Below, piece after piece: positions 45,446-62,048 of a stretch of DNA of 64,000 nucleotides (position 1 is its first letter; each line of letters begins with the position of its first letter). The notes under the pieces are model-generated. The model worked only from the letters and a program-made list of their open reading frames with translations. It had not been told where the DNA came from and did not search any database. The DNA is from Yersinia proxima (GTDB taxonomy: Bacteria; Pseudomonadota; Gammaproteobacteria; Enterobacterales; Enterobacteriaceae). Made by a program: the position numbers and the translations under genes. Location: positions 806,001-870,000 of the forward strand of contig NZ_CABHYG010000004.1 of NCBI RefSeq assembly GCF_902170785.1, in the 5' to 3' direction.

Positions 45446-45457
45446 ATATTCTCCAGA

Positions 45458-46315: not shown

Positions 46316-46327
46316 TGGGTTTAACTC

Positions 46328-47632
46328 CTAAGCGGCTTCTTTCAGCGGAGACTGTTCGAGAGGAATATCTGGGAACAAATACCCGTGAAGCTCGGTGATG
46401 GCTTTCGCTTTAACAACAGCGTTATGTGATTTCAGGTCTTCAAGTGCAACAAGGTTAAGCTGCACGGTATAGATATCGCCGCCTGGTATTGGTGGCAGAT
46501 TTTCAAGACGGCGAACATCGTTGCGGTTCATCCAGCCATTTTGCAATGCTGTGGTGTAGTAAGCGGAACGGCCCGCACTGTCAGCACGCAATAGACCTTC
46601 AACAGAGAATTCAGCAAAGTAATCCTCATCACCGGCCAGCAGGCAACGGACAATCTCCTGTTCAATATTAACCAACAGCGGGCGCAAGGTGTTGCTCAAG
46701 AAAAGAAGGTTCATGCCCTCAACACTGGAGGCCCAACTGCTTTGCTTGGTCATATGGCCCACCATAAATGGCGGCACCCTAAACCAGCGGCAAATCTCTT
46801 CGATACTGAATGCCCGACTCTCCAACATCTGGGCATCTTCCGGGTTCATGGTCACGCTTTGGTAGGTTAAATCCGCTTCCAGTACCATGACCTTACCAGC
46901 ATTTTTTGAACCGGTGAATGCTGAGATGCTTTTACGCAATGCTTCTCTCTGTTCGCCTTTCAGGGCGGCTTTGCTGGAAAGAAAGCCCGAATTTTGCATG
47001 CCATTTTCAAATACTTTCGCTGCCGACTCTTCGATCGCCATGGCTGAACCAAATACGTCCCGACCGGTATTCATCGGCATTAATCCACACATACCATCCA
47101 GACCAAATCCCCGGATGTGCATCATGGTTTTGACCGGTATCACCCGCTTCTTACCGTTCTCGGTATAGGTGTACTCAAGCTGCCCGCTGTCCAGGCGTTT
47201 AACCACCATATTCTGCGGCAACAGCGGAATAAGAGAGATAACGCGATTGCCGATCATTTTCTTTTCTATAAACGCATTGCCCCGCAAACAGATACTGGCC
47301 ACCAGCATCAACATAAAGCGCGAAGGCGTCATTTCTGAGTTGGGGCTACGGCATAGCACCGGATAAAGTGGGTGATCGGTTGCCGTGCCTCGGGAGCCGT
47401 CCGGCATCCGCTTATACAATTTCAGCGGAAGAGTCGAAACTGACTCACTGATAAGCCGGACGCACGCCCAGGCTGCGGCTAACTGAATCACTTTATCGGC
47501 GGTGACCACCTTGCCGCTGCTGCTGGTGCCAAACCATTCCTGAAAGAAGGTGCCAGTAGTGAGGCTAATTGGCACACCAAGCCAGTTAAGGAGCGCACTT
47601 TTAACGCGCCCCGGATGTTTATTTTGTGCCAT
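46328..47632 (-). CDS. Portal protein (HK97 family)
   Basis: 434 residues: AAAWACVRLISESVSTLPLK, RLDSGQLEYTYTENGKKRVI, FEEICRWF here as SIEEICRWFRVPPFMVGHM, and NGWMNRNDVRRLENLPPIPG. The dodecameric portal is the DNA channel. It touches the terminase stop by one base. Confidence 0.95.
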   Translation of the reverse strand: MAQNKHPGRVKSALLNWLGVPISLTTGTFFQEWFGTSSSGKVVTADKVIQLAAAWACVRLISESVSTLPLKLYKRMPDGSRGTATDHPLYPVLCRSPNSEMTPSRFMLMLVASICLRGNAFIEKKMIGNRVISLIPLLPQNMVVKRLDSGQLEYTYTENGKKRVIPVKTMMHIRGFGLDGMCGLMPMNTGRDVFGSAMAIEESAAKVFENGMQNSGFLSSKAALKGEQREALRKSISAFTGSKNAGKVMVLEADLTYQSVTMNPEDAQMLESRAFSIEEICRWFRVPPFMVGHMTKQSSWASSVEGMNLLFLSNTLRPLLVNIEQEIVRCLLAGDEDYFAEFSVEGLLRADSAGRSAYYTTALQNGWMNRNDVRRLENLPPIPGGDIYTVQLNLVALEDLKSHNAVVKAKAITELHGYLFPDIPLEQSPLKEAA

Positions 47633-49377
47633 TAGATACCTACTATTATTGGGTTATCAAAGAAACCATCCAGATCGCCATCCTCTTCAATATCAGCATC
47701 TTCAGCAGCGCCAATTGCCATGGCAGAAGCAACCACACCGTCAATACGGCCAGTACTTTTCTTCTTGGCAAAGATGCGGTTATCTTTCTGGTCTGCCTCG
47801 AGTACCGCTGAGGCTGCATTCCAACGCAGGCAAGGGTTACGCTTGATAATTAACTCTTTGTTATTGATTTTCTCTTCAAACAATTCGATGGAACGCGGCA
47901 TCCATAAACCGGATTCCTGCGCTTTGTAATAGCCTTGCCCATGGGGTACCAAAACGACACTGACCGAGTTGCTTTCCAGTTCAGGCTCAAGGTATTTGAT
48001 GCGGTATTGGTCAAAAGCGATGCATTTGATATTAAACATGGCTGTTAGCTCACCGATTCGGTGGGCAACAAAACCATAGTTCACCGCCTTACCCGGTGGT
48101 GCGTGGATAAAACCCGCCTTTAGCCATTTATCGTAAGGCACCCGGTCGGTTTTAGCGCGCTCGAGCAAACTGTCTTTAGGTGTCCAGAACTCAACAAATA
48201 AGCGGTTATGCTTAGGGAAAAACAGCGCCAGCGAAGTTAAGTCACGGGAGCCTGACAAATCGAGTCCGCCATAGCATTCCTCCCCCGCCAGTTCCTGAAT
48301 ATCAAATTCGTCTTCACAGTCCATCCAGGTATCACCGCCGATCCACGGTGTAGCTGATTCTACCCATTCACAAAAGTTGAGACGGCGCACAATGCTTTCT
48401 TTGGCTGGCATGCCTCGGGCAGCGGTAACCTGTTCGCGCAGGTATTTAAGTTCAAAGGTTTGGCCCAGCGAGGGGTTAGCTTTGCCCCAGCAGGATTCGT
48501 CTTTAAATGGGTCGTCACCTTCGTCCAGTGAACAGATAAAACTAAAGAAACTGTCATCTTCCAGATCGCCGCTGGCGACCTTTTTGCCGTATTCGTGGTA
48601 GTCATAACAAACGCTGGTTTTATCGTGGCCGCTGTTAGTGATTAGGAATATCAGAGCCTGACGCCGCCCTTTGGTACCGGCGCGCATCATCTCAACAACC
48701 TGATTGGTTTTATGTTCGTGAACTTCGTCAATTAGCGCACAGTGGGGGCGCGGGCCAGATTGACCATCGTCTGAGCTGATGGGTTTAAAGAATGAGCCGG
48801 TTTGCAGGAATGCCAGATTCCACACGTTTAAACCGGTACCGGATTTAACCACCCGCTGAGAGAGTGCCGGAGACTGATCGACCATTGAGACAGCATCGCG
48901 AAACAGGATCATGGCCTGGTCTTTTTTGGTCGCCGCCGCGTAAACTTCGGCCCGTGGTTCTTTGTCGGCCATCATGCAGTAAAGACCGACACCACCAGCT
49001 AGCGGGGATTTGCCCGAACCTTTGCCCGACTCCACATACACCATGCGAAAGCGTCGGGTGCCGTCACTGGATTTCCAGCCAAAAATGGAGCCGATAACAA
49101 AGCATTGCCACGACAACAAAATAAACGGCTTGCCTTCGTGGTCGCCACCATTGAGTTTTAATACGTTGGCAAAAAAGGCAATAACACGGGAAACCGCTTC
49201 GACATCCCAAACTAATCCGCGCGCGGGGCCAAGTTCCAGATCCCGCAAATGTCTTTCACAGGCATGGCGAATATCGGGGCCTGCCACTATTTTCCCTGAC
49301 GTCACATCGGTTGCATATTGAGTTACTGGATCAACCGAAGAACTGGGCGAGCGGGTCTTCTTTTTCTTCTCCGCCAT
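47632..49377 (-). CDS. Terminase large subunit
   Basis: 581 residues of the HK97/P27-associated type. The ATPase has YVESGKGSGKSPLAGGVGLY (Walker A-like) and CALIDEVHEH (Walker B). The nuclease half has GLDLSGSRDLTSLALFF and CIAFDQYRIKYL acidic residues. It packages DNA into proheads. Its start overlaps the small subunit by 47 bases. Confidence 0.95.
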   Translation of the reverse strand: MAEKKKKTRSPSSSVDPVTQYATDVTSGKIVAGPDIRHACERHLRDLELGPARGLVWDVEAVSRVIAFFANVLKLNGGDHEGKPFILLSWQCFVIGSIFGWKSSDGTRRFRMVYVESGKGSGKSPLAGGVGLYCMMADKEPRAEVYAAATKKDQAMILFRDAVSMVDQSPALSQRVVKSGTGLNVWNLAFLQTGSFFKPISSDDGQSGPRPHCALIDEVHEHKTNQVVEMMRAGTKGRRQALIFLITNSGHDKTSVCYDYHEYGKKVASGDLEDDSFFSFICSLDEGDDPFKDESCWGKANPSLGQTFELKYLREQVTAARGMPAKESIVRRLNFCEWVESATPWIGGDTWMDCEDEFDIQELAGEECYGGLDLSGSRDLTSLALFFPKHNRLFVEFWTPKDSLLERAKTDRVPYDKWLKAGFIHAPPGKAVNYGFVAHRIGELTAMFNIKCIAFDQYRIKYLEPELESNSVSVVLVPHGQGYYKAQESGLWMPRSIELFEEKINNKELIIKRNPCLRWNAASAVLEADQKDNRIFAKKKSTGRIDGVVASAMAIGAAEDADIEEDGDLDGFFDNPIIVGI

Positions 49378-49798
49378 TAACGTTCACCTTTGATCTCGCG
49401 GCTGGGGTCAGGCCGAATTCAATTAAGTAACCTTTGAAGCGGCGATCCGCATCGGCAAGCTGCCCTACGGCGGGATGTCCTTTGATAAGAAAATCACCCA
49501 TCTGGGTTTTGGTCATATAGGTGTTGCCCTCGATATCAATCTGCTGGCGCAACCGGAGGATTTCCGCATACAGATCACAAAGGCGTTCCAGTGCCATGGT
49601 ATCGGCAACGGTCAACACGCCCATCTGATCCAGCAGTAAAGTTAGCCGCCCCCAAGCCGCCTTACCCCAATCAGTTAAATGAGCAGGAGGACTTGGAATT
49701 TCTCGTGCGGGTTGAGGTTCTTTTTTGTTCAGTGGGCGCTTGCCCGGGTTACCGGTGACCACCTTCAAGTGGGTCGGGGTTGGTCGGCGTCCAGCCAT
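49331..49798 (-). CDS. Terminase small subunit (P27 family)
   Basis: 155 residues: GRRPTPTHLKVVTGNPGKRP, then PPAHLTDWGKAAWGRLTLLL are the P27-family signature. It recognises the packaging site and recruits the large subunit. The 139-bp gap upstream (49799-49937), next to the HNH gene, is where a cos site would be expected; I could not identify one. Confidence 0.93.
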   Translation of the reverse strand: MAGRRPTPTHLKVVTGNPGKRPLNKKEPQPAREIPSPPAHLTDWGKAAWGRLTLLLDQMGVLTVADTMALERLCDLYAEILRLRQQIDIEGNTYMTKTQMGDFLIKGHPAVGQLADADRRFKGYLIEFGLTPAARSKVNVNGGEEKEDPLAQFFG

Positions 49799-49937
49799 GG
49801 AAAACCTCCCAAAAAAAAGTTTTCAATTCGCGGTTGTGCGCAGAAATGACGATGATAGGTCTTTGGGGATCAAAGCCCTGAACTTTTACCCCACCCTCCC
49901 ACTTGAGATAAATTCTCATTTGAGGTGATGCGATTCA

Positions 49938-50279
49938 TTATCGTTTATTCCAGTGTGAGTTGGGGTCAATCGGCATGCCATCAGCGGTGCAGCCCGTCAC
50001 AAAACCGCTCTTCTCTTGCCGTTGCTTCGTTGAGCTATGATGTGGGGTGCATAATGATTGCCAGTTCTTTCTATCCCAGAATAGTTTCTGAGCCTTGGCT
50101 ATCTGGACTAAGTTGCCAGACATCAAGGCTTCTTTGAGTCGATGCGGCTCGATGTGGTCAACGACTGTTGCGGCTTCAATCCGTCCCTGTTGCTGGCACA
50201 TCACGCACAGGGGGTTGTCACGCAGGAAAGCCGCCCGAGCCTTAGCCCATCGGCTACCGTATACCCTTGGCTCTTTCAT
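49938..50279 (-). CDS. HNH endonuclease (packaging-associated)
   Basis: 113 residues with a zinc-HNH fold: CVMC pair, VVDHIEPHR (first His), NWQSLCTPHHSSTKQ. HK97-type phages keep such a gene beside terS, where it is needed for cos cleavage with the terminase. Confidence 0.9.
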   Translation of the reverse strand: MKEPRVYGSRWAKARAAFLRDNPLCVMCQQQGRIEAATVVDHIEPHRLKEALMSGNLVQIAKAQKLFWDRKNWQSLCTPHHSSTKQRQEKSGFVTGCTADGMPIDPNSHWNKR

Positions 50280-50306
50280 AGTTCGTCCAAAAGAAAAACC
50301 ACCGGC

Positions 50307-50570
50307 TTATAGGGCCAGTGGTTGAGGTTTATTCGCTAAAATAGCATGTTCGATTATATGACGAGCAGGCGCATCCCCGTAGATTGCTATGTAGTATCGC
50401 TTACCTTGATTCTCAAATACCTCAATTCTAAAGACTAAATACCCACCATAATGCGGCACTATTTTAGAAACCATTTCAGGCTTGGATATAAGTTTAAGAC
50501 TGGTAGCACCTAGCTCCATATCTCGCTTATCACCTTCCCATCCTGCACCAAAAATAATGACATCTACCAT
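50307..50570 (-). CDS. Hypothetical small phage protein
   Basis: About 87 residues from the ATG at 50570 (AAGAG nine bases ahead); a GTG at 50579 is possible. Mixed alpha/beta pattern (SKIVPHYGGYLVFRIEVFEN). No family recognised. It lies between the HNH gene and the lysis cassette. Confidence 0.55.
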   Translation of the reverse strand: MVDVIIFGAGWEGDKRDMELGATSLKLISKPEMVSKIVPHYGGYLVFRIEVFENQGKRYYIAIYGDAPARHIIEHAILANKPQPLAL

Positions 50571-50653
50571 GATTTTCACTCTTAAATGGAAGTTAATACA
50601 TCTTCTATATTCTTTATGTTTAGTGTCAAATCATTTAGGGGTCATTGGTGATT

Positions 50654-50917
50654 CTATAGCTTCATTTTAACATTCTGCCGCCACCCAATAACCTCATCCA
50701 ACCGCCCCTTGCAGATCCGCAGCTCACGTTTCAACGCCAGCGCATACAGCCCACTATCACCCCAAGTAGTGCCGACGAATTCCGGTACCTCGCATTCTGT
50801 TAATGCTGATTCTGGCGGTAGCAATACGGGGCAACTAGCTGGTGGACGTGAAGCCGCTTTATTCGCGCATGATGTTAATGCTAGCGTCAGGCATGCGCTG
50901 AATAGCACACTTATCAT
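50654..50917 (-). CDS. Outer-membrane spanin Rz1-like lipoprotein
   Basis: 87 residues from the ATG at 50917, with lipobox LTSC (acylated Cys17) and a proline-rich segment (RPPASCPVLLPPES). It begins inside Rz in another frame and overlaps it by 59 bases, the usual Rz/Rz1 layout. With Rz it fuses inner and outer membranes in the last step of lysis. Confidence 0.85.
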   Translation of the reverse strand: MISVLFSACLTLALTSCANKAASRPPASCPVLLPPESALTECEVPEFVGTTWGDSGLYALALKRELRICKGRLDEVIGWRQNVKMKL

Positions 50918-51191
50918 CTGACGACGCCGCCAGAAACCGCTTAAGCCGATCTTCACTTTCATTGCGTAGTTTCCTTTCTTTCTCTAGCTGACGGGCAGTG
51001 GCTGCTCGGTTGGCGGTGTCATTCACCTGGTATGCATCAATGATGTTGCCCAGTGCCGTGTTTGTGGTTTGCTCGGCCACCAGCTCCGCTTCCGTTTTTT
51101 TGACCTGATTTGAGAGGCGATAACTGTTAAAGAGCAGAGCCGACACAATAACCACCAGCACAGCAATAACTATCCCAATGACCTTATTCAT
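50859..51191 (-). CDS. Inner-membrane spanin Rz-like
   Basis: 110 residues: one N-terminal membrane helix (VIGIVIAVLVVIVSALLF) and a long periplasmic coiled coil (QVKKTEAELVAEQTTNTALG). It overlaps the endolysin stop by eight bases. Confidence 0.88.
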   Translation of the reverse strand: MNKVIGIVIAVLVVIVSALLFNSYRLSNQVKKTEAELVAEQTTNTALGNIIDAYQVNDTANRAATARQLEKERKLRNESEDRLKRFLAASSDDKCAIQRMPDASINIMRE

Positions 51192-51714
51192 CCAGCCCCC
51201 AACAGGTCAGTTCGCTTTCTTGCGCGCGGCGTTCTATCTGCCCGTAACAGTTATTTGAGCGGATATTGCAATCCTTACCGCCGTCATATACCCAGCGTTT
51301 GATTTCAGCGCATGCGCCTTTGCGGTCGCCAGCGTTGAGTTTTTTATAGAACGTGGAGGTGAAACATTTACTTGGGCCGATGTTATAGGGGCAAAACGAA
51401 GCGATACCGGCAATCTGTGGTTCAGTCAGCGGTACCCGGACATTTTTCTTCACCCAGCTTATAGCCTTATCAGCCTCCAGCTGATTCACCGCAGCACATT
51501 TCTCCGCTGACAGCTTCATCCCTTTCACTACCGGTTTACCATCGACTTGAGTAGCACCACGGCAAATAGTCCAAATCCCCTTTCCATCGGGATAAGCAAC
51601 CAGCCGGTTCCCCTCTTTCTCATCCAAAAGCTGATCAAGAATTATGGTGGCCGGTGCTGCAACCATAATCAGAGCCAGAACTGCCGCGCTTAATTTACTT
51701 TTGGTCGAGGCCAT
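51184..51714 (-). CDS. SAR endolysin (GH24 lysozyme, R21-like)
   Basis: 176 residues. The N-terminal weakly hydrophobic segment (SAAVLALIMVAAPATIILDQ), rich in Ala and Gly-like small residues, is a signal-anchor-release domain. The catalytic triad follows the T4 pattern Glu34-x8-Asp43-x5-Thr49 in EGNRLVAYPDGKGIWT. It degrades peptidoglycan once freed from the membrane. The ATG at 51714 overlaps the holin stop as TGATG. Confidence 0.92.
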   Translation of the reverse strand: MASTKSKLSAAVLALIMVAAPATIILDQLLDEKEGNRLVAYPDGKGIWTICRGATQVDGKPVVKGMKLSAEKCAAVNQLEADKAISWVKKNVRVPLTEPQIAGIASFCPYNIGPSKCFTSTFYKKLNAGDRKGACAEIKRWVYDGGKDCNIRSNNCYGQIERRAQESELTCWGLDE

Positions 51715-51929
51715 CACTCACCATCCGGTTTATAGCCGTGGCGACGATCCCAAATCTTGACGCCAGCATTAAGCATAAATGTCAGGGCCATAAAGAATAA
51801 CGAACCAAGCACACCAATCACCGTCCACTCATCAGGGGTGAAGCCAGCAATCAGCTCTTTAGCCCAAAAAATAAAACTACCACCCGACGCCAGGTAGGAA
51901 GCATTAGAAGCGATATTGCTCATTTTCAT
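51714..51929 (-). CDS. Pinholin, S21-like
   Basis: 71 residues resembling phage 21 S: an externalisable first helix (ASYLASGGSFIFWAKELI), the segment DEWTVIGVLGSLFFMALTFM as second helix, and a charged tail. The start MKM offers two Met codons with a Lys between. GGGGGAG lies three bases before the first and nine before the second, the same dual-start idea as the antiholin/holin pair of phage 21. Pinholins depolarise the membrane and release the SAR endolysin. Confidence 0.88.
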   Translation of the reverse strand: MKMSNIASNASYLASGGSFIFWAKELIAGFTPDEWTVIGVLGSLFFMALTFMLNAGVKIWDRRHGYKPDGE

Positions 51930-52046
51930 GATCTCCCCCTCCCGGTCAGCGGGTTGGGCGCGTAGTTAAGGAATTTAGCCCACCAGTGCAGCCACTCATG
52001 CGGAGTAATGTGTGTGGAGTTGATTGGGTGACTGATGGGCTAAAAC

Positions 52047-52075
52047 GAAAAAGCCCCAGCATTTAGGCTAGGGCT
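52047..52075 (-). terminator. Terminator between the methyltransferase and the lysis genes
   Basis: Minus strand AGCCCTAGC / GCTGGGGCT stem followed by TTTTT. It begins at the methyltransferase stop codon, so the lysis genes need their own promoter or Q-type antitermination. Confidence 0.75.
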
Positions 52076-53120
52076 AAGTAAGTAATGCTTTGATTTCCTC
52101 AACGGTCTGATTAAACCGTTCTTCTTCCAGTTCGACCCCGATCCCCACTCTACCTAGCTTTAAAGCGGCTTTGAGTGTGGCACCCGATCCCAAAAAGAAA
52201 TCAGCCACCACATCACCCGGCCTGCTGCTAGATCTGATTATGTGTTCCATCAAGTCTGCAGGTTTCTCACAAGGATGTTTACCAGGATAAAAAGCAACAG
52301 AAGGAAATGTCCAAACATCGGTATATGGTACATCAGCAGTAACAGCGAACGGTCGCCGCAATGATTCATACTCGAGGCCCAACTCTGAATACTGCCGATT
52401 CAATATCTGATATTCCGCTACCAGATCATGATGGGGTTTACTCAATATCCCCTGTTGATGCTTCCCAGCTGCTATGCGGCTAAACAGAGTTTGCAACACG
52501 GCATATTGCTCGGCATTAGGTAATTGCCATTGGCTTTCACTAAACCAATGACTCGACATTTGCCGACCTGTCGCCTCATTTATAGCCTTTGCCGACACGC
52601 CAAGCGATGCTCTGGCCAACCGGAAATAATCAATCAATGGCTTGAAGACATTCTGTTTCAGTGTCTTGCATTTGTCGGCATAAGTGCTGCCCTTGGGCGT
52701 GAATGGCCCCGCATAATGGTCTGCAAAGATAATCCGCTCAGTTGCAGGGAAGTAAGAGCGCAAATCCTCTTTATGCATGCGCCGCCACGGGCCTGATGGT
52801 TTAGCCCAGATAATATGGTTCAGCACATTAAAACGCCCACGCACCAGAATTTCTGTGTCGGCAGCAAGGCGAGAACCGCAAAACATATAAAGACTGCCGG
52901 AAGGTTTCAATACCCGCCAAAACTCCGCAAGCAACTCATCTAACCAGGCAAGATATGCCGACTCACTTTCCCACTGATTATCCCATTTACATGACTTAAC
53001 CCTGAAATAAGGCGGATCAGTAGCTATCAGGTCAATGCAGTTATCAGGCAGGGTTTTGATATAACAAAGAGAATCAGCGTTAATAATTTTACTACTGTTT
53101 AAATAAACAGTGTTTTTCAT
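52074..53120 (-). CDS. Orphan DNA methyltransferase (beta class, N4/N6)
   Basis: 348 residues. The catalytic motif DPPYF comes first (LIATDPPYFRVK), followed by the SAM-binding region near the C-terminus (VVADFFLGSGATLKAALKLG), the beta-class order. A target-recognition insert of about 120 residues lies between. No restriction enzyme is next to it, so it is likely a protective or regulatory methylase. It sits at the head of the lysis region. Confidence 0.9.
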   Translation of the reverse strand: MKNTVYLNSSKIINADSLCYIKTLPDNCIDLIATDPPYFRVKSCKWDNQWESESAYLAWLDELLAEFWRVLKPSGSLYMFCGSRLAADTEILVRGRFNVLNHIIWAKPSGPWRRMHKEDLRSYFPATERIIFADHYAGPFTPKGSTYADKCKTLKQNVFKPLIDYFRLARASLGVSAKAINEATGRQMSSHWFSESQWQLPNAEQYAVLQTLFSRIAAGKHQQGILSKPHHDLVAEYQILNRQYSELGLEYESLRRPFAVTADVPYTDVWTFPSVAFYPGKHPCEKPADLMEHIIRSSSRPGDVVADFFLGSGATLKAALKLGRVGIGVELEEERFNQTVEEIKALLT

Positions 53121-53265
53121 AGATCATTCTACCGTTTCTTGGTAGGCTCAGATCCGCTTTGTGCACACAAGCGTTGGGCCTTGGTTCGCCTGTGACTTTG
53201 CAAACAGGCGAATGGCAGAAGCAGTGTTACCAGCACTCTTCTGCCGCCCATTCCACAAACAAAAA

Positions 53266-53339
53266 AGCCCTGACTTATGTCGGGGCTTATCATTTTTGGG
53301 GACTGATAAAACACAAAACCCCGCACAAAGGCGAGGTTT
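53266..53339 (-). terminator. Tandem terminators upstream of the methyltransferase
   Basis: Two minus-strand hairpins with T runs: AGCCCCGAC/GTCAGGGCT (53266-53287) and AAACCTCGC/GCGGGGTTT (53316-53339), each with a wobble pair. A further 9-bp hairpin TTCGCCTGT/ACAGGCGAA lies near 53182-53212. The region 53121-53530 has no convincing gene. It separates the 409-residue cargo gene from the late genes and could serve as a tR'-like site for Q; that is an inference. Confidence 0.6.
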
Positions 53340-53530
53340 CTTTGATTGGATAAGCGCTACTGCACAACCAACTCTTATCACAATAGTGGGTAAAATTCGT
53401 AACGAATAGCTGTTTATATGTTTTTTTATTCGTTCATACTTACTCTGACACTCATTGTACTCTGGGTTCAATCAGATCAGACGGTCAGCTTTGTGCCATA
53501 TGCGGACATTGTCCATTACACTAATGTGTC

Positions 53531-54760
53531 CTAATTAGTAGTTTGCCATAGTGGACATGATTTATATTTACTTTCCCGGATCTTTGGCTGCAATTCATTA
53601 ATTGATTCGAATTTCTCGTTGATTTTCAAGTCTATCAATTTGAAAATTATGGAGCGGCTAAATGTTAACGCCTTTTTCAACTCATTTTCTCCAAGATTAT
53701 TAGACCCAGCATGGACTACTTTAGATCTTAATCCATATAGTTCTTTGACGTAATCTTCAATTTCTAAGCATTCATCTACTGATTCCCCACTTATATAAGC
53801 ACATTGTTCAGCCATGCTAGCTACTATAGAGGCAGTAATAACACTATGTTCATTAACTTTGAAAAGTGCTTCAAGCGCAATTACGACTTTCAGTAAGGCA
53901 CTTGATCTGTTTTTATCGCGATAAGCTTCGCCAATCCATTCAACTGCTCTGGAGAGTTTCCTTTCAAGTTGGGTGCCCGGAGATAAAACGACATTAAAAA
54001 AATTCGTCATCAAGCTTTCTTTTTTTTCTGGAAAATAATCAGCCAGATCAGTCAGATCAATTATTTGATCTTGTTCACGTTTATTTCCAGCCCTTCCAAA
54101 AATTGAGCCTTCCGTATAAATAATCGATGGTTCGGTAGGAGAAAACTCATACATAAAAGCACCTATAGAAAACTCTTTACCTTTCTTCGCCGATAAGAAA
54201 GCAAATGACAACTCTAGTGTGTTGAAAAAAGTGTCTGCAATTTCTGAAGCTTTATAGGAATCTAATGATTTCACACATAATTGAACAACAGTTTTTGTAG
54301 GTTGCTGTTTACTAAAGAAAGTATCTGAGAATGGAAGTTTTATATGGCTTGCATGGCGAGGAATCTCATAAAAACAAAATGGCCCTAGATTAACAGGGTG
54401 AGACCCATTTTTTATATTTCCACCAAATACTTGTTTAACAACCCTATGTTCTCTTTGCTTAACTAAACTACTAATGAGGTTTTTGAAATATTTAACACGA
54501 ACATCCACATCATCATCCGGGTGATCACTACAATCAAATAAGGTTTTTTCAATATAATATCTAAAATATATCTTTGAAATAAATTGTCCATCATTGGTTT
54601 TTGATAAATTATCTAATCCTTTTTCAAAAGATTCATTGTCAGTGATTATAATGACGTTACCAATAAATCCATCGTCAGAAAATATTCTTTTTTCGACTGT
54701 GGTTTTATTTAATGTACATGATTTAAAAATTCGACTGGAAATATCTTTGCTATAAGTCAT
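53531..54760 (-). CDS. Apea-like HEPN protein (candidate abortive-infection RNase)
   Basis: 409 residues, AT-rich. The start at 54760 has AGGATTCAGG ahead; a TTG at 54799 is discounted. The C-terminal region (about 260-380) is helical and resembles HEPN/Apea: SALLKVVIALEALFKVNEHS, ASMAEQCAYISGE, then LYGLRSKVVHAGS with Arg345-x4-His350, the HEPN ribonuclease motif. The N-terminal 250 residues (EFSIGAFMYEFSPTEPSIIY among them) would be the sensor. It lies in an island between Q and the late genes with its own flanking non-coding DNA. The HEPN reading is fairly strong; the defence role is inferred from relatives such as ApeA. Confidence 0.72.
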   Translation of the reverse strand: MTYSKDISSRIFKSCTLNKTTVEKRIFSDDGFIGNVIIITDNESFEKGLDNLSKTNDGQFISKIYFRYYIEKTLFDCSDHPDDDVDVRVKYFKNLISSLVKQREHRVVKQVFGGNIKNGSHPVNLGPFCFYEIPRHASHIKLPFSDTFFSKQQPTKTVVQLCVKSLDSYKASEIADTFFNTLELSFAFLSAKKGKEFSIGAFMYEFSPTEPSIIYTEGSIFGRAGNKREQDQIIDLTDLADYFPEKKESLMTNFFNVVLSPGTQLERKLSRAVEWIGEAYRDKNRSSALLKVVIALEALFKVNEHSVITASIVASMAEQCAYISGESVDECLEIEDYVKELYGLRSKVVHAGSNNLGENELKKALTFSRSIIFKLIDLKINEKFESINELQPKIRESKYKSCPLWQTTN

Positions 54761-55140
54761 CCTGAATCCTAATGTGATGGTGTAAACTAATACAGTCAAT
54801 GCTTATCATGATACTATATCTCTATTGAAACAATAAATTGGAATTAGATAAAATTCAATAAGTTAACACTTCATCAGTTATGTCCGCTTTTCGCTCATAG
54901 CAGACCTGACAGCAATTCAGACAGGCCCCTCCGTGCCAGAAGCGGACTATGGACACGCTACGAATGAAGCAGTAATGTACGTAGGCGTTGTAGTTCCTCA
55001 TCCTCGTCTGATGTCGTGTTTGTGGCCCCCCTCAAGCAGAGTGAGGAGTACCCCATGGGGCAGAGAGTGTTATTGGGCTCATCCGACGAAAAAATATTAT
55101 TTCCCCAAGTGTCTTTTACTAATGATTAGCCGCAGGAACT
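54761..55140. other. Non-coding part of the accessory island
   Basis: This 380-bp stretch separates divergent genes. It has an AT-rich half next to the HEPN-type gene, presumably its promoter, and a more GC-rich half with GTCCGCTT ... AAGCGGAC arms (near 54883 and 54943) that look like remains of other sequence. A 119-codon plus frame over the GC-rich half is not convincing. Confidence 0.4.
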
Positions 55141-55521
55141 ATGAATGGAGGCTATGTGGAATACATTGCAAAATCGCCACGACTGCGATTGTCGGTTACG
55201 CTACTGTTAACAGTAGCAATTGGTGTATTATCAAGCATCATGGCAGGTCAAATAATGCCACAAGGTGTACTAACTTGGTCGCTACTACCTAAAGTTTCTT
55301 CTTTTTGGTTGTTAGTGCTATTTTCCGGGGGTTGGATTTTTATCCATGTAAATTTTCTTAATTACGATGAAAATATCATGAGATATGCAGATGACCAGCA
55401 CTGTATTGCCCTCATCCGGAAAGCAAAACTTGAAGGGCTTGTTGTACTCATACAGAAAAATCCAGAGCAGGCCTCTTTGGTTGATGCAAAGACATTTCTA
55501 AAAAATCTGGGGATAAAATGA
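55141..55521 (+). CDS. Small two-helix membrane protein coupled to a RelE-like gene
   Basis: 126 residues. Two membrane helices (SVTLLLTVAIGVLSSIMAG and SSFWLLVLFSGGWIFIHV) are followed by a 55-residue helical cytoplasmic tail (CIALIRKAKLEGLVVLIQKN). An AGGAAC site precedes the ATG; a GTG at 55156 with GGAGG ahead is an alternative. The stop overlaps the next start as ATGA, so the two products are coupled. No family recognised. In place it is where an antitoxin would be. Confidence 0.6.
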   Translation: MNGGYVEYIAKSPRLRLSVTLLLTVAIGVLSSIMAGQIMPQGVLTWSLLPKVSSFWLLVLFSGGWIFIHVNFLNYDENIMRYADDQHCIALIRKAKLEGLVVLIQKNPEQASLVDAKTFLKNLGIK

Positions 55522-55769
55522 GCATACTCCTCTCTAAGACAGCGCAAGAAAAACTACAGAAAAGTGAACTCCGCTCTCAGGTATCGGTACTTCAACTAAT
55601 GTCTAAACTTGAAGCTTTAAACATATCAAAACTAGAAAGTGACCCATCAGTTCGACGGGTGAAAGGTACGACAGAAGAGATTTATGTAATGCGTATAGGT
55701 AGCAATCTACGTGCTTTTCTCACTAAGAGAGGAACAGATATTATTCTGCTTAGCATTGAGAACGGCTAG
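55518..55769 (+). CDS. RelE/ParE-superfamily-like small protein
   Basis: 83 residues. The pattern LLSKTAQEKLQKSELRSQV, then VRRVKGTTEEIYVMRIGS, NLRAFLTKRGTDIILLSI fits the RelE fold: N-terminal helices, then strands with the basic residues Lys and Arg. Length is right for the family. It may be a translation-dependent mRNase toxin or a degenerate relative. It follows the membrane protein with an ATGA overlap. Confidence 0.55.
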   Translation: MSILLSKTAQEKLQKSELRSQVSVLQLMSKLEALNISKLESDPSVRRVKGTTEEIYVMRIGSNLRAFLTKRGTDIILLSIENG

Positions 55770-56302
55770 CCATTCACTCAACTGGACTGACCCACAGAAT
55801 AAAGGATGCACGAGATCGAGCTATACGTACTCATCAACTGAATAAGTCCCGTAAACTGTATCGCAGCGTCAACACGACTACGCGGCACCATTCTAATAAT
55901 CCTGGTGCTGAGTATCGCTGGGAACGCAATCGCAAAAAAGTCGGAGATGAGCTACTGGCAAAGCGCGAGACAATGCATGGCAGACAGAAGCGTGGCCGAG
56001 ACTACGCACCATTGTTTTATTTTCTGATCAAGCAGATTGGCAAACCGTGGGATGAAATATTCAGCGAAGTATGTGGACGTCTTGATACCACCGAGCCTGT
56101 ATTCTGGTTGGTCGCACTATATGAGTATCAGCGAAGGGATTTAGTCTGCATTGGCGAAAGCAGTTTTTATCCGGGTTTGTTTGTTGATGAGAATGGAATT
56201 CTGCAACAGGTAAACCCTTCAATTACGAGAAAGGACGTTAAAGTGACTTGTCGCTGCTGTACACACACTTATATTGGTGAACCTGTACCTTGGATAGATT
56301 GA
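55760..56302 (+). pseudogene. Cargo gene with a damaged 5' end
   Basis: An ATG at 55973 opens 109 codons (RDYAPLFYFLIKQIGKPWDE, CIGESSFYPGLFVDENGIL, a CRCC zinc-like pair near the end). The same frame is open back to 55760 and its translation (KDARDRAIRTHQLNKSRKLY) looks like real coding sequence, but no ATG, GTG or TTG occurs there before 55973. An ATG at 55806 with AAAGG ahead lies in another frame and stops at 55841. The gene has probably lost its start by recombination or a frameshift. Family not recognised. Confidence 0.5.
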
Positions 56303-56423
56303 GTGACAACACCTCCTATCTTGCTACGGGTGCGGCCGTCATCAGCAATGAGAGTGATTGCGAACTTCAGCTCCTCACTCATAACCGACGCCCATATTTA
56401 GCCCCCATTGCCAAAGAACATTG

Positions 56424-56837
56424 TCAGCACAGATCCGATACAGTTTTTGTACTATCAGCCTTATGTGTCCACTCATCCATTTCTAACTTAGCGCCAGCCA
56501 TAATCAAACAGGCATCTACAAAAGTTTCCGCCAGCATGAGTTTTAACCGAATCTTACCCTCTGAGCACTTATGCTTTCGGGCAATCGCTGACTTTGATAT
56601 CCCCTTCTTATAATGCTGCTCAATCAGATCGTACTCTTCGCTGCGCCCTGCCTTTTTCAATCGGCCGATAGCAGCATCGACTAGCAACCCGTCATTATCA
56701 CAGCAAGACAATCGTGCTTTTGAGGTGCTTGGTAAAAGCCCTTTGAAGCCAGCGGCAATAGGGGAATAGCCAACACCACTATCTTCATTAGCAGCCCAGC
56801 CGCCCCAGCGTTCCAGAACTAACTGAATATCTCTCAT
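56424..56837 (-). CDS. Late antiterminator Q
   Basis: 137 residues of the phage antitermination Q family (P22/82 type): MRDIQLVLERWGGWAANEDS, YSPIAAGFKGLLP, and the HTH-like YKKGISKSAIARKHKCSEGK. It modifies RNA polymerase at the late promoter so that it passes terminators into lysis, head and tail genes. It overlaps the DUF968 gene by four bases. The accessory island separates it from those genes. Confidence 0.92.
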   Translation of the reverse strand: MRDIQLVLERWGGWAANEDSGVGYSPIAAGFKGLLPSTSKARLSCCDNDGLLVDAAIGRLKKAGRSEEYDLIEQHYKKGISKSAIARKHKCSEGKIRLKLMLAETFVDACLIMAGAKLEMDEWTHKADSTKTVSDLC

Positions 56838-57859
56838 GCTAAAGCCCCTATACCGATTGACCGATCCATAAAACGAAATAGCAGAACTATCTGGCTACCG
56901 TGCTTCTCTTCCCACGCTCGCTGGTTATCATGCAATTTGTCATGACAGATACGGCACAAAGGGAAGGTGAACAGGTCATGCGCCTTGGTTGCCATGCCGC
57001 CCTGCCCGTGTCCGATGATGTGGTGAGGGTCACAGTCGCTATTACCACAACCGCAGCAAGGCTGTGATTTCACCCATTGCAGATATTTCCGGTTCTCCCA
57101 GCGCCGCAGTTTTGGCCTGAGCATAAAACCTGCTGGTGGCTCGGCATCAACCTTTAGAGCCAAAGCGGGTTTTACTGCTATTTCCGTTGGTGGCTTGGCT
57201 TTCGTCACTTTCCTGGCAACCACCTCTTGTGGTGCAGGTGTCCAGGTAATATCACTCTCTTTTGTGCCGCCAGTTTCGATCACTGCGGGTGGCATACGCA
57301 GAGAAGAACGGGCAATAGCATCCGGCAACAGGTCGTAAACCTCGTTAACCACCGCCCACCAACACAACTCCGGCAGCGTCAGCTGGTGGCCCTCAGAAAA
57401 ACGAAAGTAGCCGCGAACGGTTTCGACCACCCAAGCGACGAGATTATTGGTCGCCAGTTGATTTAGGCGAGGAAGTGTCTGCTCTCTCAGCTTATTGTCG
57501 TGATGCCAGCACAGACGAATTGACCGTTGGTTATAACGCAAGGTGCTGAGATTGCGGTCATGGCTATCATCCGGATCATGCCACTGGCACTCTTTCAGCC
57601 GTTCAACCCATGCCTCAAGCACACGAGGGCCACCAGCAGCATTGATAACCCGCTCATGTTCAAAGAACGGTAACAATCGCGGATCATTGGCTAGCTGTTG
57701 ATTGGCGACCGGCAACGCGCCAGCAGGCAGCAATTTAAACTCATCCGGTTCAGTGGCCACCAGCAAGCGGCCTGACATATACGGCAATAAATCTGCACCT
57801 GGCTTCAATATCACCACGCCCAGCTCACGCTGAATAAACGGGGTTAATAGCGCCCTCAT
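56834..57859 (-). CDS. DUF968-family protein with C-terminal HNH nuclease
   Basis: 341 residues. The N-terminal 200 (MRALLTPFIQRELGVVILKP, LRYNQRSIRLCWHHDNKLRE) are the DUF968 domain. The end has a zinc HNH: CCGCG, DPHHIIGHGQGGMATKAHD, LCRICHDKLH. Such genes sit in the nin-like region before Q and may help recombination or replication. It overlaps the MT-A70 gene by four bases. Confidence 0.9.
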   Translation of the reverse strand: MRALLTPFIQRELGVVILKPGADLLPYMSGRLLVATEPDEFKLLPAGALPVANQQLANDPRLLPFFEHERVINAAGGPRVLEAWVERLKECQWHDPDDSHDRNLSTLRYNQRSIRLCWHHDNKLREQTLPRLNQLATNNLVAWVVETVRGYFRFSEGHQLTLPELCWWAVVNEVYDLLPDAIARSSLRMPPAVIETGGTKESDITWTPAPQEVVARKVTKAKPPTEIAVKPALALKVDAEPPAGFMLRPKLRRWENRKYLQWVKSQPCCGCGNSDCDPHHIIGHGQGGMATKAHDLFTFPLCRICHDKLHDNQRAWEEKHGSQIVLLFRFMDRSIGIGALA

Positions 57860-58431
57860 TCTCCCCTCCGTGCATTCGCAATGGCTGGACAGAGATCGAT
57901 ACTATTGATGCACTCATTGCCCCAACTATCCCAGCCCTCAGCCTGCGTTCTGGCAAACAGCTCTATGCGGGGAACATCCCCTAACAGAGAAACAAGCAGA
58001 TCGCGAAAAACATCAGGTTTGGCACTGTGTTCACCCCGTGGGGCTGTTTGATGCTGACAAATAGCCGCATTCAAGCGTTCAGGCAAACGGCCTTTCACAG
58101 CAAACAGCACATCTTCACTATTAGCGCGGGTCATATGGCCCATGCCGATCGCACTGTTCCCTTTTAATTTATTGGTCTTATGCCAGGTGAAGCCCTTCAT
58201 GGTCATTAACCGGAAACCCCAAGCCTCGACAACCTTTAATGCCTCAACTGGCTGAGTGGGTACCCTCCACATAGCAAGCAGGCAGCTTTCACCAGCCAGT
58301 TCCCATATAGGAAGACGACAAATATCAGTAAGATCCATAGTCTTATATTTAAAATCGACACCCCGCTTTCCGCTATTGGCTTTGTCACGATAAGTCCACG
58401 GCGGATCTGCATAAATGATTTGATAGGTCAT
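57856..58431 (-). CDS. MT-A70-family adenine methyltransferase
   Basis: 191 residues. The DPPW catalytic motif (IIYADPPWTYRDKANSGKRG) and CLLAMWRVPTQP place it in the MT-A70 group; MGHMTRANSEDVLFAVKGR and RIELFARTQAEGWDSWGNE are family segments. It would methylate adenine N6 in phage DNA, perhaps as anti-restriction. It overlaps its neighbours by four bases each. Confidence 0.92.
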   Translation of the reverse strand: MTYQIIYADPPWTYRDKANSGKRGVDFKYKTMDLTDICRLPIWELAGESCLLAMWRVPTQPVEALKVVEAWGFRLMTMKGFTWHKTNKLKGNSAIGMGHMTRANSEDVLFAVKGRLPERLNAAICQHQTAPRGEHSAKPDVFRDLLVSLLGDVPRIELFARTQAEGWDSWGNECINSIDLCPAIANARRGE

Positions 58432-59444
58432 GCTGCGGCCTCCCCGTTCACGCGCTGGCTACATTCTTTCCAGATAGCATTCCAACGCTGAACCGCAAAA
58501 CTGGCGTTCATTGAACGGATGCCGGATTTACTGGCTTCTTTGCTCACCTGCTGCTCAAGCTGGCTAGGGTTTTCTTTCGGTAGCCCACTGCCGATAAAGC
58601 GACGATATGCCGCATCACGCTCAGTCGTATCACCAGTCAGCAACTCACCATTGGCCTTAACCCACTTGCCATCTTTGCGTGTTGGACGCCCTGCCCCATG
58701 CCAACGGTTAGCCCCTTCGAGATAGCCAGGGAATTTGGTTGGTTGGAAAAGTGTTGTCGGGCGCAGGTATTCAGCCATATCCAGATCTGCGGCCCACTTA
58801 GCGTGGAGGTAATCAACCGTGAGTTTCAGCTCTGCAACAGTGAACTGCTCTTTCAGCCGGGCGCGGATGTTCTCCAGCGATGATTTGCTGGTCTGGTACC
58901 GAGAGCCGGTAATCAGGTTCAGGTGTTTTAAAACGTCTTTGGCCTGATCAGTAATTTCAACTTCAGGGTCGGTCGCCATCGGCGGCTGACAGGTAGGTTT
59001 TTTACTTGATGGATCAGGTGTTGAATTTACTGACGGATCGCCCCCAGATTCTGGCGGGTCAAAAGTGCCATTCTTGTCAGATTCCGACCCGTCGAATTTT
59101 GAGCCATCAGATTTTGACCCGTCAGATTTTGAGGTGTCGGATTCTGACGCATGAGCAGCAGCCTTAAGTTTGGCGACATTCAGCTGATAAACATTACTGG
59201 CATTGCGGTTACCGGCGCGGCGGGCTTTCTTGCTTAACCAGCCATCAGTTTCCAGCTCAGCCAGCGCAGTACGGACGGTGCTCTCGCCTGCCCCTATCTG
59301 TCGGGCAATCGTCGTCACTGATGGCCAGCACACCCCCTCATCATTAGAGAAATCAGCAAGACGGGCCATGATTGCCACCTTCGATATTTTCATACCCGCA
59401 GTCGCACAGCCGTCCCATACATAACTGGATAGCTTTACGCTCAT
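58428..59444 (-). CDS. O-like replication initiator
   Basis: 338 residues. The N-terminal winged helix (ISKVAIMARLADFSNDEGVC to STVRTALAELETDGWLSKKA) binds the origin. A low-complexity Ser/Asp linker (100-130) is coded by iterons. The C-terminal phage replication domain has VLKHLNLITGSRYQTSKSS and LRPTTLFQPTKFPGYLEGAN. It opens the prophage origin and recruits host replication proteins; no P or DnaC-like gene is visible next to it. Confidence 0.9.
   Translation of the reverse strand: MSVKLSSYVWDGCATAGMKISKVAIMARLADFSNDEGVCWPSVTTIARQIGAGESTVRTALAELETDGWLSKKARRAGNRNASNVYQLNVAKLKAAAHASESDTSKSDGSKSDGSKFDGSESDKNGTFDPPESGGDPSVNSTPDPSSKKPTCQPPMATDPEVEITDQAKDVLKHLNLITGSRYQTSKSSLENIRARLKEQFTVAELKLTVDYLHAKWAADLDMAEYLRPTTLFQPTKFPGYLEGANRWHGAGRPTRKDGKWVKANGELLTGDTTERDAAYRRFIGSGLPKENPSQLEQQVSKEASKSGIRSMNASFAVQRWNAIWKECSQRVNGEAAA
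59073..59147. repeat. Five 15-base iterons, candidate prophage replication origin
   Basis: Five head-to-tail 15-base units of the form xxxTCAGATTTTGA lie inside the O-like gene, at 59073, 59088, 59103, 59118 and 59133. The best-kept part is TC-GATT-TGA. Lambda also has its iterons within O. The repeats code for the Ser-Lys-x-Asp-Gly-type linker. Confidence 0.8.
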
Positions 59445-59638
59445 ACAACCGCCTTATATTCTTTCCTGAAACGCCGGATGGGTATTGAACAGTCATGCTC
59501 ATAATCATCACGACGAAAAATGACTTGTCCTGTTGCGTTGTCGTAGCCAATAACGTGAACGCGAATACCGCGCTTATCGTTGTAATACCGATCAAGCAAT
59601 TGGATGGGGTTAGTCGAGGTCGTGCCGGGATTCGTCAT
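59441..59638 (-). CDS. DUF4222-family small phage protein
   Basis: 65 residues from the ATG at 59638 (MTNPGTTSTNPIQLLDRYYN), with HVIGYDNATGQVIFRRDDYE matching DUF4222. Function unknown. ATGA overlaps with both neighbours put it in the replication operon. Confidence 0.75.
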   Translation of the reverse strand: MTNPGTTSTNPIQLLDRYYNDKRGIRVHVIGYDNATGQVIFRRDDYEHDCSIPIRRFRKEYKAVV

Positions 59639-59796
59639 ACGCGGCCCCACTTACGGCAGACCGCACCCACAATTCCCTGCGCCCTGCTGTGGTTGCACGG
59701 TTTCCACCGACCCCTTATCATTCGTTCATACCGGAACGGGCTGACACAAACGCAACGCAGTTGCGGAATAGAACGTTTAGCCGCTACAATGTTCAT
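59635..59796 (-). CDS. Short phage ORF in the replication operon
   Basis: 53 codons from the ATG at 59796: MNIVAAKRSIPQLRCVCVSP, with four cysteines in a C-x-C ... C ... C pattern and many basic residues, so perhaps a small zinc-binding protein. A GGAG lies ten bases ahead, and the stop overlaps the DUF4222 start as ATGA. No family is assigned. Confidence 0.5.
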   Translation of the reverse strand: MNIVAAKRSIPQLRCVCVSPFRYERMIRGRWKPCNHSRAQGIVGAVCRKWGRV

Positions 59797-59803
59797 GCGT
59801 TAA

Positions 59804-60331
59804 TTACTCCACACGTTTAGTTAATGCACCCGACGCCTCAGTGCCGCACACTGGGGCGTCACCCCATAACATCACCGATATCGCAATAATCTCTGCAATA
59901 ATTGACTGCGCTTTATACCCCTTAGCTTTCAGCCGCTTAGTTTCATCACGATCTAACACGCCATCAGCGGTAAACTCATTGTGCGCACGACCAAAATCAC
60001 CCAAAGCCACCAGCAGATCGTTAAATTTGATAAGCAGCTCGTCGTTGCCAATGTCATTCACTTCCGGCAGCTTTACGAACACACCACCAGCTCGCTTGCA
60101 CATGGCTTCCGTAATGTCGGAACGGCCAGAGATTGATTCCATCTCTATAGCCATGCCCAACGGCACTACCTGCCCCGCCAACTGGCGAACACGATTACGC
60201 AATGCATTCTCGGTACCGGACAGTGGGCATAACTGTTTAGCCATCGCGTCATACTTGCCCGGTGTCTGAGTTATCAGCTGGTGTATCGCGTCACTAATAT
60301 CCGGCTGAGTTGGAAAGTCTTTGTTATCCAC
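59804..60331 (-). CDS. CII/YmfL-like phage regulatory protein
   Basis: 175 residues of the CP76/YmfL family: DISDAIHQLITQTPGKYDAM, LRNRVRQLAGQVVPLGMAIE, and ISGRSDITEAMCKRAGGVFV. These occupy the cII place after cro and probably control the lysis-lysogeny choice. It is transcribed with cro from pR. Confidence 0.8.
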   Translation of the reverse strand: MDNKDFPTQPDISDAIHQLITQTPGKYDAMAKQLCPLSGTENALRNRVRQLAGQVVPLGMAIEMESISGRSDITEAMCKRAGGVFVKLPEVNDIGNDELLIKFNDLLVALGDFGRAHNEFTADGVLDRDETKRLKAKGYKAQSIIAEIIAISVMLWGDAPVCGTEASGALTKRVE

Positions 60332-60368
60332 AATGTTTCTCTCTCTTTGGTGGTTTAACTGGGGCTTA

Positions 60369-60569
60369 TTAAGCTCTATTGTTTTTATAGAGAGCTGGAT
60401 TGAACTTCAGAGCGCCGTCTGTTCTTAGCGCTGCCTCTGCCGCTCGACCTTTTGGAATTAATCGCCCTGGTCGCTTTCTCCATTGGTAAATGGCCTCAGG
60501 CGACACCCCATAAAATTCAGCAACGAGGTTTGCATCGCCGAAATAGTTCTCTAATTCATCAGTAGTCAT
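60369..60569 (-). CDS. Cro-like repressor
   Basis: 66 residues from the ATG at 60569 (GGAGG five bases ahead). NLVAEFYGVSPEAIYQWRKR is a YdaS/Cro-type HTH. It is divergent from the CI repressor across the operators, the position of cro, and would shut off early transcription during lytic growth. Confidence 0.85.
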   Translation of the reverse strand: MTTDELENYFGDANLVAEFYGVSPEAIYQWRKRPGRLIPKGRAAEAALRTDGALKFNPALYKNNRA

Positions 60570-60580
60570 AGCACCCTCCA

Positions 60581-60653
60581 TCTAAGTTATCTTAGATATT
60601 AAAAGCAAATTTATCTTTGGTCAATTGAAACTAAGATAACTTAGCTTCATGTT
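60581..60653. promoter_or_regulatory. OR region with pR and pRM
   Basis: Two operators: TCTAAGTTATCTTAGA (60581-60596) and CTAAGATAACTTAG (60631-60644). On the minus strand pR has -35 TTGACC (60619-60624), a 17-base spacer and -10 TAATAT (60596-60601), so the first operator covers its start. A weaker plus promoter for cI (TTGAAA at 60625-60630) spans the second operator. Confidence 0.8.
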
Positions 60654-60668
60654 GATTAGGATAAGTTC

Positions 60669-61301: not shown

Positions 61302-61340
61302 CTAAAATTCGACTCTTTATAGAGTCTTATACCCATAAAG

Positions 61341-61391
61341 CTAAGTTTTATTAGATTTAATATTGACACAAAACCTAAGTTAAATTAGATT
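61341..61391 (+). promoter_or_regulatory. OL region with pL promoter
   Basis: Two operator-like sites, CTAAGTTTTATTAG (61341-61354) and CTAAGTTAAATTAG (61375-61388), related to those at OR. Between and over them is TTGACA (61363-61368), a 17-base spacer and TAGATT (61386-61391). It drives the rightward early operon and should be repressed by CI. Confidence 0.78.
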
Positions 61392-61492
61392 TAATGCATC
61401 AACAGCGGACAGGCAGGACGCCCACGTAGTAGCTGCCAGTGGCATACACCGGATGATTCGCTTAGCAGGGTTAACAGTGTGGAGTAACAGGC

Positions 61493-61726: not shown

Positions 61727-61730
61727 ATCA

Positions 61731-61844: not shown

Positions 61845-61873
61845 TACCTTGTTCCATTGCTGTGCTGTGTCTT

Positions 61874-62002: not shown

Positions 62003-62048
62003 TGGAGTAAACAACGCAGTGCGAACTGCATTACTGAGGGTCGCCCCG

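What the first reader, a model, noticed from the sequence alone, without database searches (positions are those of the whole stretch)
53531..54760. Candidate HEPN abortive-infection protein in an island between Q and the late genes
The 409-residue protein has a helical C-terminal domain with Arg345-x4-His350 in an Apea-like setting. It is AT-rich and surrounded by non-coding DNA and terminators, at a point where lambdoid phages normally go straight from Q to the late promoter. Known relatives such as ApeA are HEPN ribonucleases that stop phage growth; the N-terminal sensor half here is unlike anything I recognise.
Basis: partly seen in the sequence, partly recalled or inferred. Interest (0 to 1): 0.8.

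Follow-up and report, generated by a model that had tools for sequence, protein, structure and literature searches.

The report
HEPN gene in prophage cargo bay
A dormant virus in a bacterial chromosome carries, in a swappable cargo slot beside its late-gene switch, a gene for a likely RNA-cutting self-sacrifice protein that has probably jumped between species and may protect the cell from other viruses.

Summary
The 409-codon gene (54760-53531, minus) carries R345-SKVV-H350; R and H are kept in 9 of 9 aligned proteins. Of 20 listed plasmid relatives, 19 are annotated "HEPN domain-containing protein". It is AT-rich and lies between Q and the lysis genes.

The ApeA link is not supported: no Pfam match, and profile comparison with three ApeA proteins gives E 0.2. 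It belongs to a thinly spread HEPN family; the N-terminal half is shared with a Priestia plasmid protein. Structure prediction never completed.

A genus-mate has the gene at 99.2% identity in an unrelated island beside Tmn, although chromosomal DNA differs by 8-11%: a recent transfer.

The site is a cargo bay. In three "empty" prophages read closely the Q stop codon lies inside a conserved late-leader block; elsewhere 1-10 kb separates them. Of 22 loci with a clear leader, 8 are empty and 14 filled. Six of the 13 other filled bays (nine scanned) match known or candidate defence families, among them ApeA+TIR and PD-Lambda-5; no background rate was measured.

Best reading: a lysogeny-expressed, phage-activated HEPN RNase. 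Fold and antiphage activity are inferred, not shown.

The parts
53531..54760 (-). HEPN gene, 409 aa
   Evidence: ORF, translation; 98% identical protein in G018; relatives
53606..53998 (-). C-terminal HEPN domain (residues about 255-385); R345 codon 53726-53728, H350 codon 53711-53713
   Evidence: invariant W275 E297 L299 Y342 R345 S346 H350 I372 in 9 of 9 rows; fold not tested
53999..54760 (-). N-terminal (putative sensor) part, residues 1-254
   Evidence: BLAST aligns residues 43-401 to Priestia, E 3e-29 in a five-sequence search, 1e-20 in all plasmids; Listeria aligns by BLAST only from residue 203
53495..54948 (-). DNA shared with G018 in an otherwise unrelated context; the low-coordinate end abuts an IS30-like transposase element in G018 (named by eye), so that boundary may be IS-made
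54875..54955 (.). dispersed repeat (GTCCGC...GTGCCAgaaGCGGAC); a related GTGCCAtatGCGGAC lies at 53493-53507
53307..53510 (-). conserved late leader with predicted late promoter (ATAAAcAGCTATTCGTTACGAATTTTAC) and terminator 53340-53315
   Evidence: isrJ-like but below gathering score (26.4 of 37 bits)
53511..56375 (.). cargo bay between Q and the predicted late promoter
56424..56837 (-). antiterminator Q
   Evidence: PF06530 E 2e-45
52074..53120 (-). phage DNA methyltransferase, first sizeable gene after the leader
   Evidence: PF01555 E 1.1e-42
55141..55521 (+). second cargo: 126-aa protein, apparently membrane (read by eye)
   Evidence: no family hits
55518..55769 (+). second cargo: 83-aa faintly RelE-like protein
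   Evidence: phrog_1213 RelE-like toxin, E 0.16 only; three unrelated Pfam matches, all below cut-off
55786..56379 (+). plasmid-type segment, ~89% to a hypothetical gene on Citrobacter plasmids and in E. coli

Best explanation
The gene is a single-gene, prophage-carried HEPN effector that works by abortive infection. Shown here: the gene, its conserved R-x4-H, its relatives, its recent horizontal movement, and its place in a cargo bay upstream of the predicted late promoter, where several other prophages carry matches to known or candidate defence families. Inferred: it is expressed in the lysogen from its own AT-rich upstream region and not as part of the Q-driven late operon; the protein is a latent HEPN dimer; the N-terminal half senses a product of an infecting phage (a structural, tail-type protein is my first guess, by analogy with Tha); the dimer then cuts RNA through R345/H350 and stops the cell before phage progeny are made.
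For: R345/H350 invariant in 9 of 9 and in L015, L016. Tblastn in 72,556 plasmid records: 26 with a match, 20 listed, 19 of them annotated 'HEPN domain-containing protein' and 1 'hypothetical protein'. A profile of the close group matches the Klebsiella/Cronobacter/Edaphovirga group at E=1.7e-13 over 112 columns of the HEPN part. Sporadic: 4 of 147 relatives, 3 of 398 in the phylum after dropping G462, 3 of 274 in the class; the window's own genome is one hit each time and G131 is in both of the first two. Recent transfer: 10 of 1230 coding bases differ from G018 while window 1-9000, taken as chromosomal core, is 89-92% identical. G018's copy lies beside Tmn (PADLOC E 2.4e-177). The same bay in other prophages: ApeA+TIR, PD-Lambda-5 A/B (E 1.5e-164 / 6.6e-125), PDC-S42, PDC-M53A, and an ATPase (NsnB 1.7e-48, AriA 1.6e-28; a common ATPase type that matched 73 PADLOC models). 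Published analogue: Tha, a prophage HEPN RNase triggered by minor tail proteins (PMC11087260, passages).
Against: No Pfam or NCBIfam model hits; PADLOC gives only a weak mad3 match (E 0.0067). 7 of 10 base changes between the two close copies alter the protein, so that pair gives no sign of purifying selection. No deposited phage carries a relative (0 of 50,697 records, tblastn E<=0.01). Some bays hold non-defence genes (LysE+AsnC, Ada+PEP mutase, sugar uptake). No background rate of PADLOC hits elsewhere in these prophages was measured. A promoter for the gene was not found above chance (11 promoter-like sites against 9.8 +/- 3.0 in shuffles, and none listed just upstream of the gene on its strand).
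Confidence: 0.6

Rival explanations
1. A genuine ApeA-family protein (PF18739) that has diverged.
For: Same general plan: N-terminal part plus C-terminal region with conserved E and R-x4-H. A true ApeA sits in the same bay of another prophage of the genus.
Against: PF18739 not reported for this protein at E<=10 nor for eight relatives at E<=1; hhalign with three ApeA proteins E=0.2, probability 0.3%; BLAST with the G018 ApeA E=9.3. Three sequences make a thin profile, so a distant tie is not excluded.
Confidence: 0.1
2. A HEPN toxin of a toxin-antitoxin module, with the neighbouring 126-aa/83-aa pair (55141-55769) as partner, maintaining the prophage rather than fighting phages.
For: The pair starts 381 bases away, divergently; the 83-aa protein looks faintly RelE-like.
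Against: In G018 the shared DNA ends at 54948 and a Tmn gene follows instead of the pair, so the HEPN gene persists there without it next door. I did not search the rest of G018 for the pair.
Confidence: 0.15
3. A HEPN protein acting in phage regulation or RNA processing (not defence), kept because it is useful in the lytic programme.
For: The gene is co-directional with Q and the late genes; no terminator-like site listed between its stop and the leader.
Against: It is upstream of the predicted late promoter; of the 22 bays only the window's holds it; and the same gene lives in another context in G018.
Confidence: 0.1
4. A decaying or neutral passenger gene without function.
For: 7 of 10 differences from the G018 copy change an amino acid.
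Against: Full-length frame in both copies, motif intact, homologues with the same motif in distant bacteria.
Confidence: 0.1

Closest known systems
Tha (Staphylococcus aureus prophage HEPN system; PMC11087260, passages read)
   Same: Prophage-borne HEPN effector with C-terminal R-x4-H and a separate N-terminal part.
   Different: No significant sequence relation: BLAST E=13, hhalign E=0.15 with 21 columns aligned at the motif. Tha-1 is 301 aa, lies near the integrase and has an inhibitor gene; none was recognised here.
ApeA (PF18739 + PF18862)
   Same: HEPN protein with an N-terminal domain; a real ApeA occupies the same bay in a G018 prophage.
   Different: No Pfam or profile match.
HEPN proteins on Priestia, Listeria, Klebsiella and Cronobacter plasmids
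   Same: True sequence relatives (Priestia 25% over 76%, E 1e-20); R and H kept in the five fetched.
   Different: No function seen in what I read; the Klebsiella/Cronobacter group shares mainly the C-terminal part and lies near phage tail-fibre genes.
P2 and P4 defence hotspots (PMC9122126, PMC9519451, passages read)
   Same: One prophage locus that holds interchangeable defence genes.
   Different: The 'Q' there is a P2 gene next to the portal position, not the antiterminator. The bay here is between lambdoid antiterminator Q and its predicted late promoter.

Membership tests
HEPN superfamily | Rx4-6H motif | tested here: met
   R345-x4-H350, 9 of 9 rows, G462 dropped; L015 and L016 also; rule from PMC3710099 (passages)
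HEPN superfamily | polar residue just after R (mostly N, D or H) | tested here: inconclusive
   invariant S346: polar, but not one of the usual three
HEPN superfamily | upstream acidic residue, typically Ex3[KR] | tested here: inconclusive
   E297 invariant; full ExxxK in the window protein only, 1 of 9 rows
HEPN superfamily | helical fold, dimer with shared cleft | not tested
   prediction job never completed
HEPN superfamily | match to a curated HEPN model | tested here: not met
   0 Pfam families at E<=10, 0 NCBIfam at E<=1
ApeA (PF18739/PF18862) | PF18739 HEPN_Apea match | tested here: not met
   profile comparison
ApeA (PF18739/PF18862) | ApeA_NTD1 match | tested here: not met
Tha | sequence relation to Tha-1 | tested here: not met
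Tha | activation by phage tail protein, RNase | not testable with these tools
   bench work needed
Prophage defence hotspot | variable content between conserved flanks, with empty sites | tested here: met
   8 empty and 14 filled of the 22 loci with a clear leader, out of 45 examined; E. coli 118UI empty
Prophage defence hotspot | enriched in defence genes | tested here: inconclusive
   6 of 13 other filled bays have PADLOC matches at E<1e-10; 9 of the 13 were scanned, not every gene in them, and no background rate was measured

The most novel reading that the evidence does not exclude
The protein belongs to an uncharacterised HEPN defence family with its own N-terminal sensor, spread over plasmids of Gram-positive and Gram-negative bacteria and a prophage. 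The junction of the Q stop codon and the late promoter is a general insertion point where lambdoid prophages load and swap lysogeny-expressed defence genes without breaking late gene control.
Probability: 0.45. Interest if true: 0.65.

Novelty: new member of a known kind. Interest (0 to 1): 0.5.

Why it matters
If true, it adds an unnamed HEPN family to the abortive-infection effectors and points to a precise, easily recognised place (Q stop codon to late leader) where defence genes can be looked for in lambdoid prophages. Two HEPN families (this one and ApeA) and a known system, PD-Lambda-5, in the same bay of relatives make that testable at once. The bay lies just upstream of the predicted late promoter; Shiga-toxin phages carry their cargo downstream of Q under that promoter (PMC6266700, start of abstract only).

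Tried and rejected
ApeA membership: rejected. Tha membership: rejected at sequence level. isrJ as the identity of the leader: 26.4 bits against a gathering score of 37 in the window, and not reached in 10 other loci; kept only as a hint. tRNA cargo: none in 45000-64000. PDB sequence search: no match at E<=1. Relatives in viral contigs from this protein, Priestia, Klebsiella, Listeria and A3: none; A2 gave three there and one in genome contigs, where this protein itself found none. E. coli: no match to the HEPN DNA in 20,395 records at blastn sensitivity. PD-Lambda-5 context in E. coli: only a 169-base methylase match, not followed. G462 dropped as a false relative, a judgement. Leader hits weaker than E 1e-5 (L086, L089, L111, L113) were left out of the 22; 19 of the 45 stretches had no leader hit and were not studied further. 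Papers: PMC11087260, PMC3710099, PMC9519451, PMC11364771, PMC12724215 and PMC9122126 by passages; PMC6266700 by listing and start of abstract only. I recall a Salmonella Gifsy HEPN protein, HepS, triggered by a tail protein; my search found no paper, so it is recall only. A Q/late-promoter defence hotspot was not seen in the listings of searches or the passages read (this library only).

Full report
Observation. The motif is ELYGLRSKVVHAG with R at 345 and H at 350. The gene is 33% GC and 25% GC3, against 46-53% and 42-52% for six other genes of the prophage; the neighbouring cargo pair is 39-40% GC. It lies between Q (56424-56837, PF06530) and the DNA methyltransferase, holin and lysozyme. 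Terminator-like and promoter-like sites in the region are not clearly above shuffles (4 against 2.9 +/- 1.5; 11 against 9.8 +/- 3.0).

What the protein is. No Pfam family is reported at E 10 and no NCBIfam model at E 1; PADLOC gives only a weak mad3 match. Tblastn finds relatives in 26 of 72,556 plasmid records; 20 rows were listed, 19 named 'HEPN domain-containing protein' and one 'hypothetical protein'. The best, from Priestia megaterium pFDU301D, matches 76% of the query at 25% identity, E 1e-20. There is none in 50,697 phage records. Whole-genome searches hit 4 of 147 relatives, 4 of 398 in the phylum (one, G462, I judged false) and 3 of 274 in the class with a profile; the window's own genome is one hit in each, and G131 is in the first two. 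In the alignment of nine proteins (this one, five of the 26 plasmid records, three genomes), W275, E297, L299, Y342, R345, S346, H350 and I372 are invariant; L015 and L016, not in that alignment, also keep R-x4-H. BLAST aligns the N-terminal half to Priestia from residue 43 on, but Listeria only from residue 203. The Klebsiella/Cronobacter/Edaphovirga group matches over 112 C-terminal columns (E 1.7e-13).

It is not an ApeA by any test I could make (PF18739 absent; profile comparison with three proteins E 0.2). It is not detectably related to Tha-1, although the only 21 columns aligned are those of the catalytic motif. I could not obtain a structure: the machine was full at 13 requests and the accepted job was interrupted. 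So 'HEPN' rests on motif conservation, the conserved upstream acidic residue and the annotation of relatives; the fold is untested.

It has moved recently. In the unnamed genus-mate G018 the gene is 98% identical as protein, with 10 of 1230 bases different, although window 1-9000, which I take as chromosomal core, is only 89-92% identical between the genomes. The shared DNA is only 53495-54948. In G018 it lies between an IS30-like transposase element (named by eye) and Tmn (PADLOC E 2.4e-177), with an ArdC-like gene nearby (by eye). One edge is an approximately 65-80-base dispersed repeat, also found in the bay of G021. The IS element at the other edge may have made that boundary. Seven of the ten base changes alter the protein, so this pair shows no purifying selection.

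The site. The Q search listed 67 matches in 21 of 25 genomes of the genus. I examined the best 44 of those 67, 40 fetched and four already held (the window among them), plus one stretch without Q (L044): 45 in all. A model of the conserved leader (seeded from the window, then rebuilt from its hits) matches 22 of 45 at E<1e-5, four more weakly, and 19 not at all. In 8 of the 22 the distance from the Q stop to the leader match is between -48 and +69 bases; in 14, the window included, it is 1,038 to 10,469. At letter level I compared three of the eight empty sites: in L108, L109 and L112 the Q stop codon is inside the block ATAAAAAGCTATTCGT(A/T)ACGAAT(T/C)TTACC. In the filled L049, L051, L110 and the window the Q tail differs and nearly the same block reappears at the far end of the cargo. 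The leader core matches 2 of 5,426 E. coli genomes, under 'antiterminator Q family protein' in both; the one I opened, strain 118UI, has the empty layout with the same gene order, Q, leader, a short ORF, methyltransferase, holin. I read this block as the late promoter and its terminated leader; that is prediction, with only a sub-threshold isrJ likeness. So the cargo lies upstream of the predicted late promoter. Of the 22 bays only the window's holds a member of this HEPN family (profile search of the held loci).

What else the bay holds. Of the 13 other filled bays I scanned proteins, not always all, of nine with PADLOC. Six match at E<1e-10: ApeA+TIR (L110, scanned as L050), PDC-S42 (L083; L084, scanned as L045), PDC-M53A (L082), PD-Lambda-5 A and B (L101) and an ATPase best matched by NsnB (L107; it matches 73 models, so it is a common ATPase type). 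PDC models are predicted candidates, not proven systems. The other three scanned do not: L085 and L106 hold a nucleoid-protein (NA37) plus membrane-like pair, and L049 holds LysE with an AsnC-type gene read by eye. Of the four not scanned with PADLOC, L051 holds Ada and PEP mutase (Pfam), L095 sugar-uptake genes among others (by eye) and L046 and L103 only ORFs of up to 141 aa. G012, 94-98% identical over window 1-9000, has a prophage with Q 97.8% identical but LysE+AsnC in the bay, so turnover is recent. I did not measure the PADLOC rate elsewhere in these prophages, so enrichment is suggested, not shown.

Mechanism. Most likely a latent HEPN dimer made in the lysogen, triggered through the N-terminal half by a product of an infecting phage, cutting RNA and stopping the cell. 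Presence, motif, mobility and site are shown. Expression, dimer, trigger and RNA cleavage are inferred, by analogy with Tha (PMC11087260, passages) and the HEPN survey (PMC3710099, passages). Rivals are a diverged ApeA, a toxin-antitoxin toxin, a phage regulator or a passenger; the data disfavour the first and do not exclude the others.

Host. Not named by any search. I infer Yersinia, weakly, from three Yersinia enterocolitica phages that match a 90-base stretch at 92.5% (two Escherichia phages match a third of that query, at 72%) and from the genus's size and genome lengths. For that reason the bench test with this very gene is referred.

Verdict. A real and well-placed HEPN candidate; a new member of a known kind, from an unnamed HEPN family, in a cargo bay that deserves a systematic look. 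The ApeA label should be dropped.

Noticed in passing
L110/L050 (G018:C1:2699000-2716700): Another prophage of G018 carries a genuine ApeA (PF18739, PF18862), a TIR protein and transposases (these by eye) in 10.5 kb between Q and the late leader.
   Followed up: partly
L101:500-2775 (G017): PD-Lambda-5 A and B fill the same bay in another prophage.
   Followed up: partly
L085 and L106 (G022, G014): Two prophages have a pair in the bay: NA37 (NdpA-like) protein plus a protein that looks membrane-bound; no PADLOC match at E<1e-10. A candidate undescribed defence pair.
   Followed up: no
window 55141-55769: Overlapping pair of a membrane-like 126-aa protein and an 83-aa faintly RelE-like protein on the plus strand; no DNA match in plasmids.
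   Followed up: partly
L049:3181-3903 (G012): A DUF4145 (HEPN-like) protein, PD-T7-4-like (E 1e-7), lies between holin and leader where the window has its methyltransferase.
   Followed up: no
L006, L007, L009: HEPN relatives of the second group lie near tail-fibre genes on Klebsiella and Cronobacter plasmids that look like phage-plasmids.
   Followed up: no
window 55786-56379: Segment about 89% identical to hypothetical genes on Citrobacter plasmids and E. coli chromosomes, next to Q.
   Followed up: partly
window 54875-54955: Dispersed repeat with palindromic GTCCGC/GCGGAC ends, with matches in ten other genomes of the genus and one in the bay of G021; may mediate cargo exchange.
   Followed up: partly
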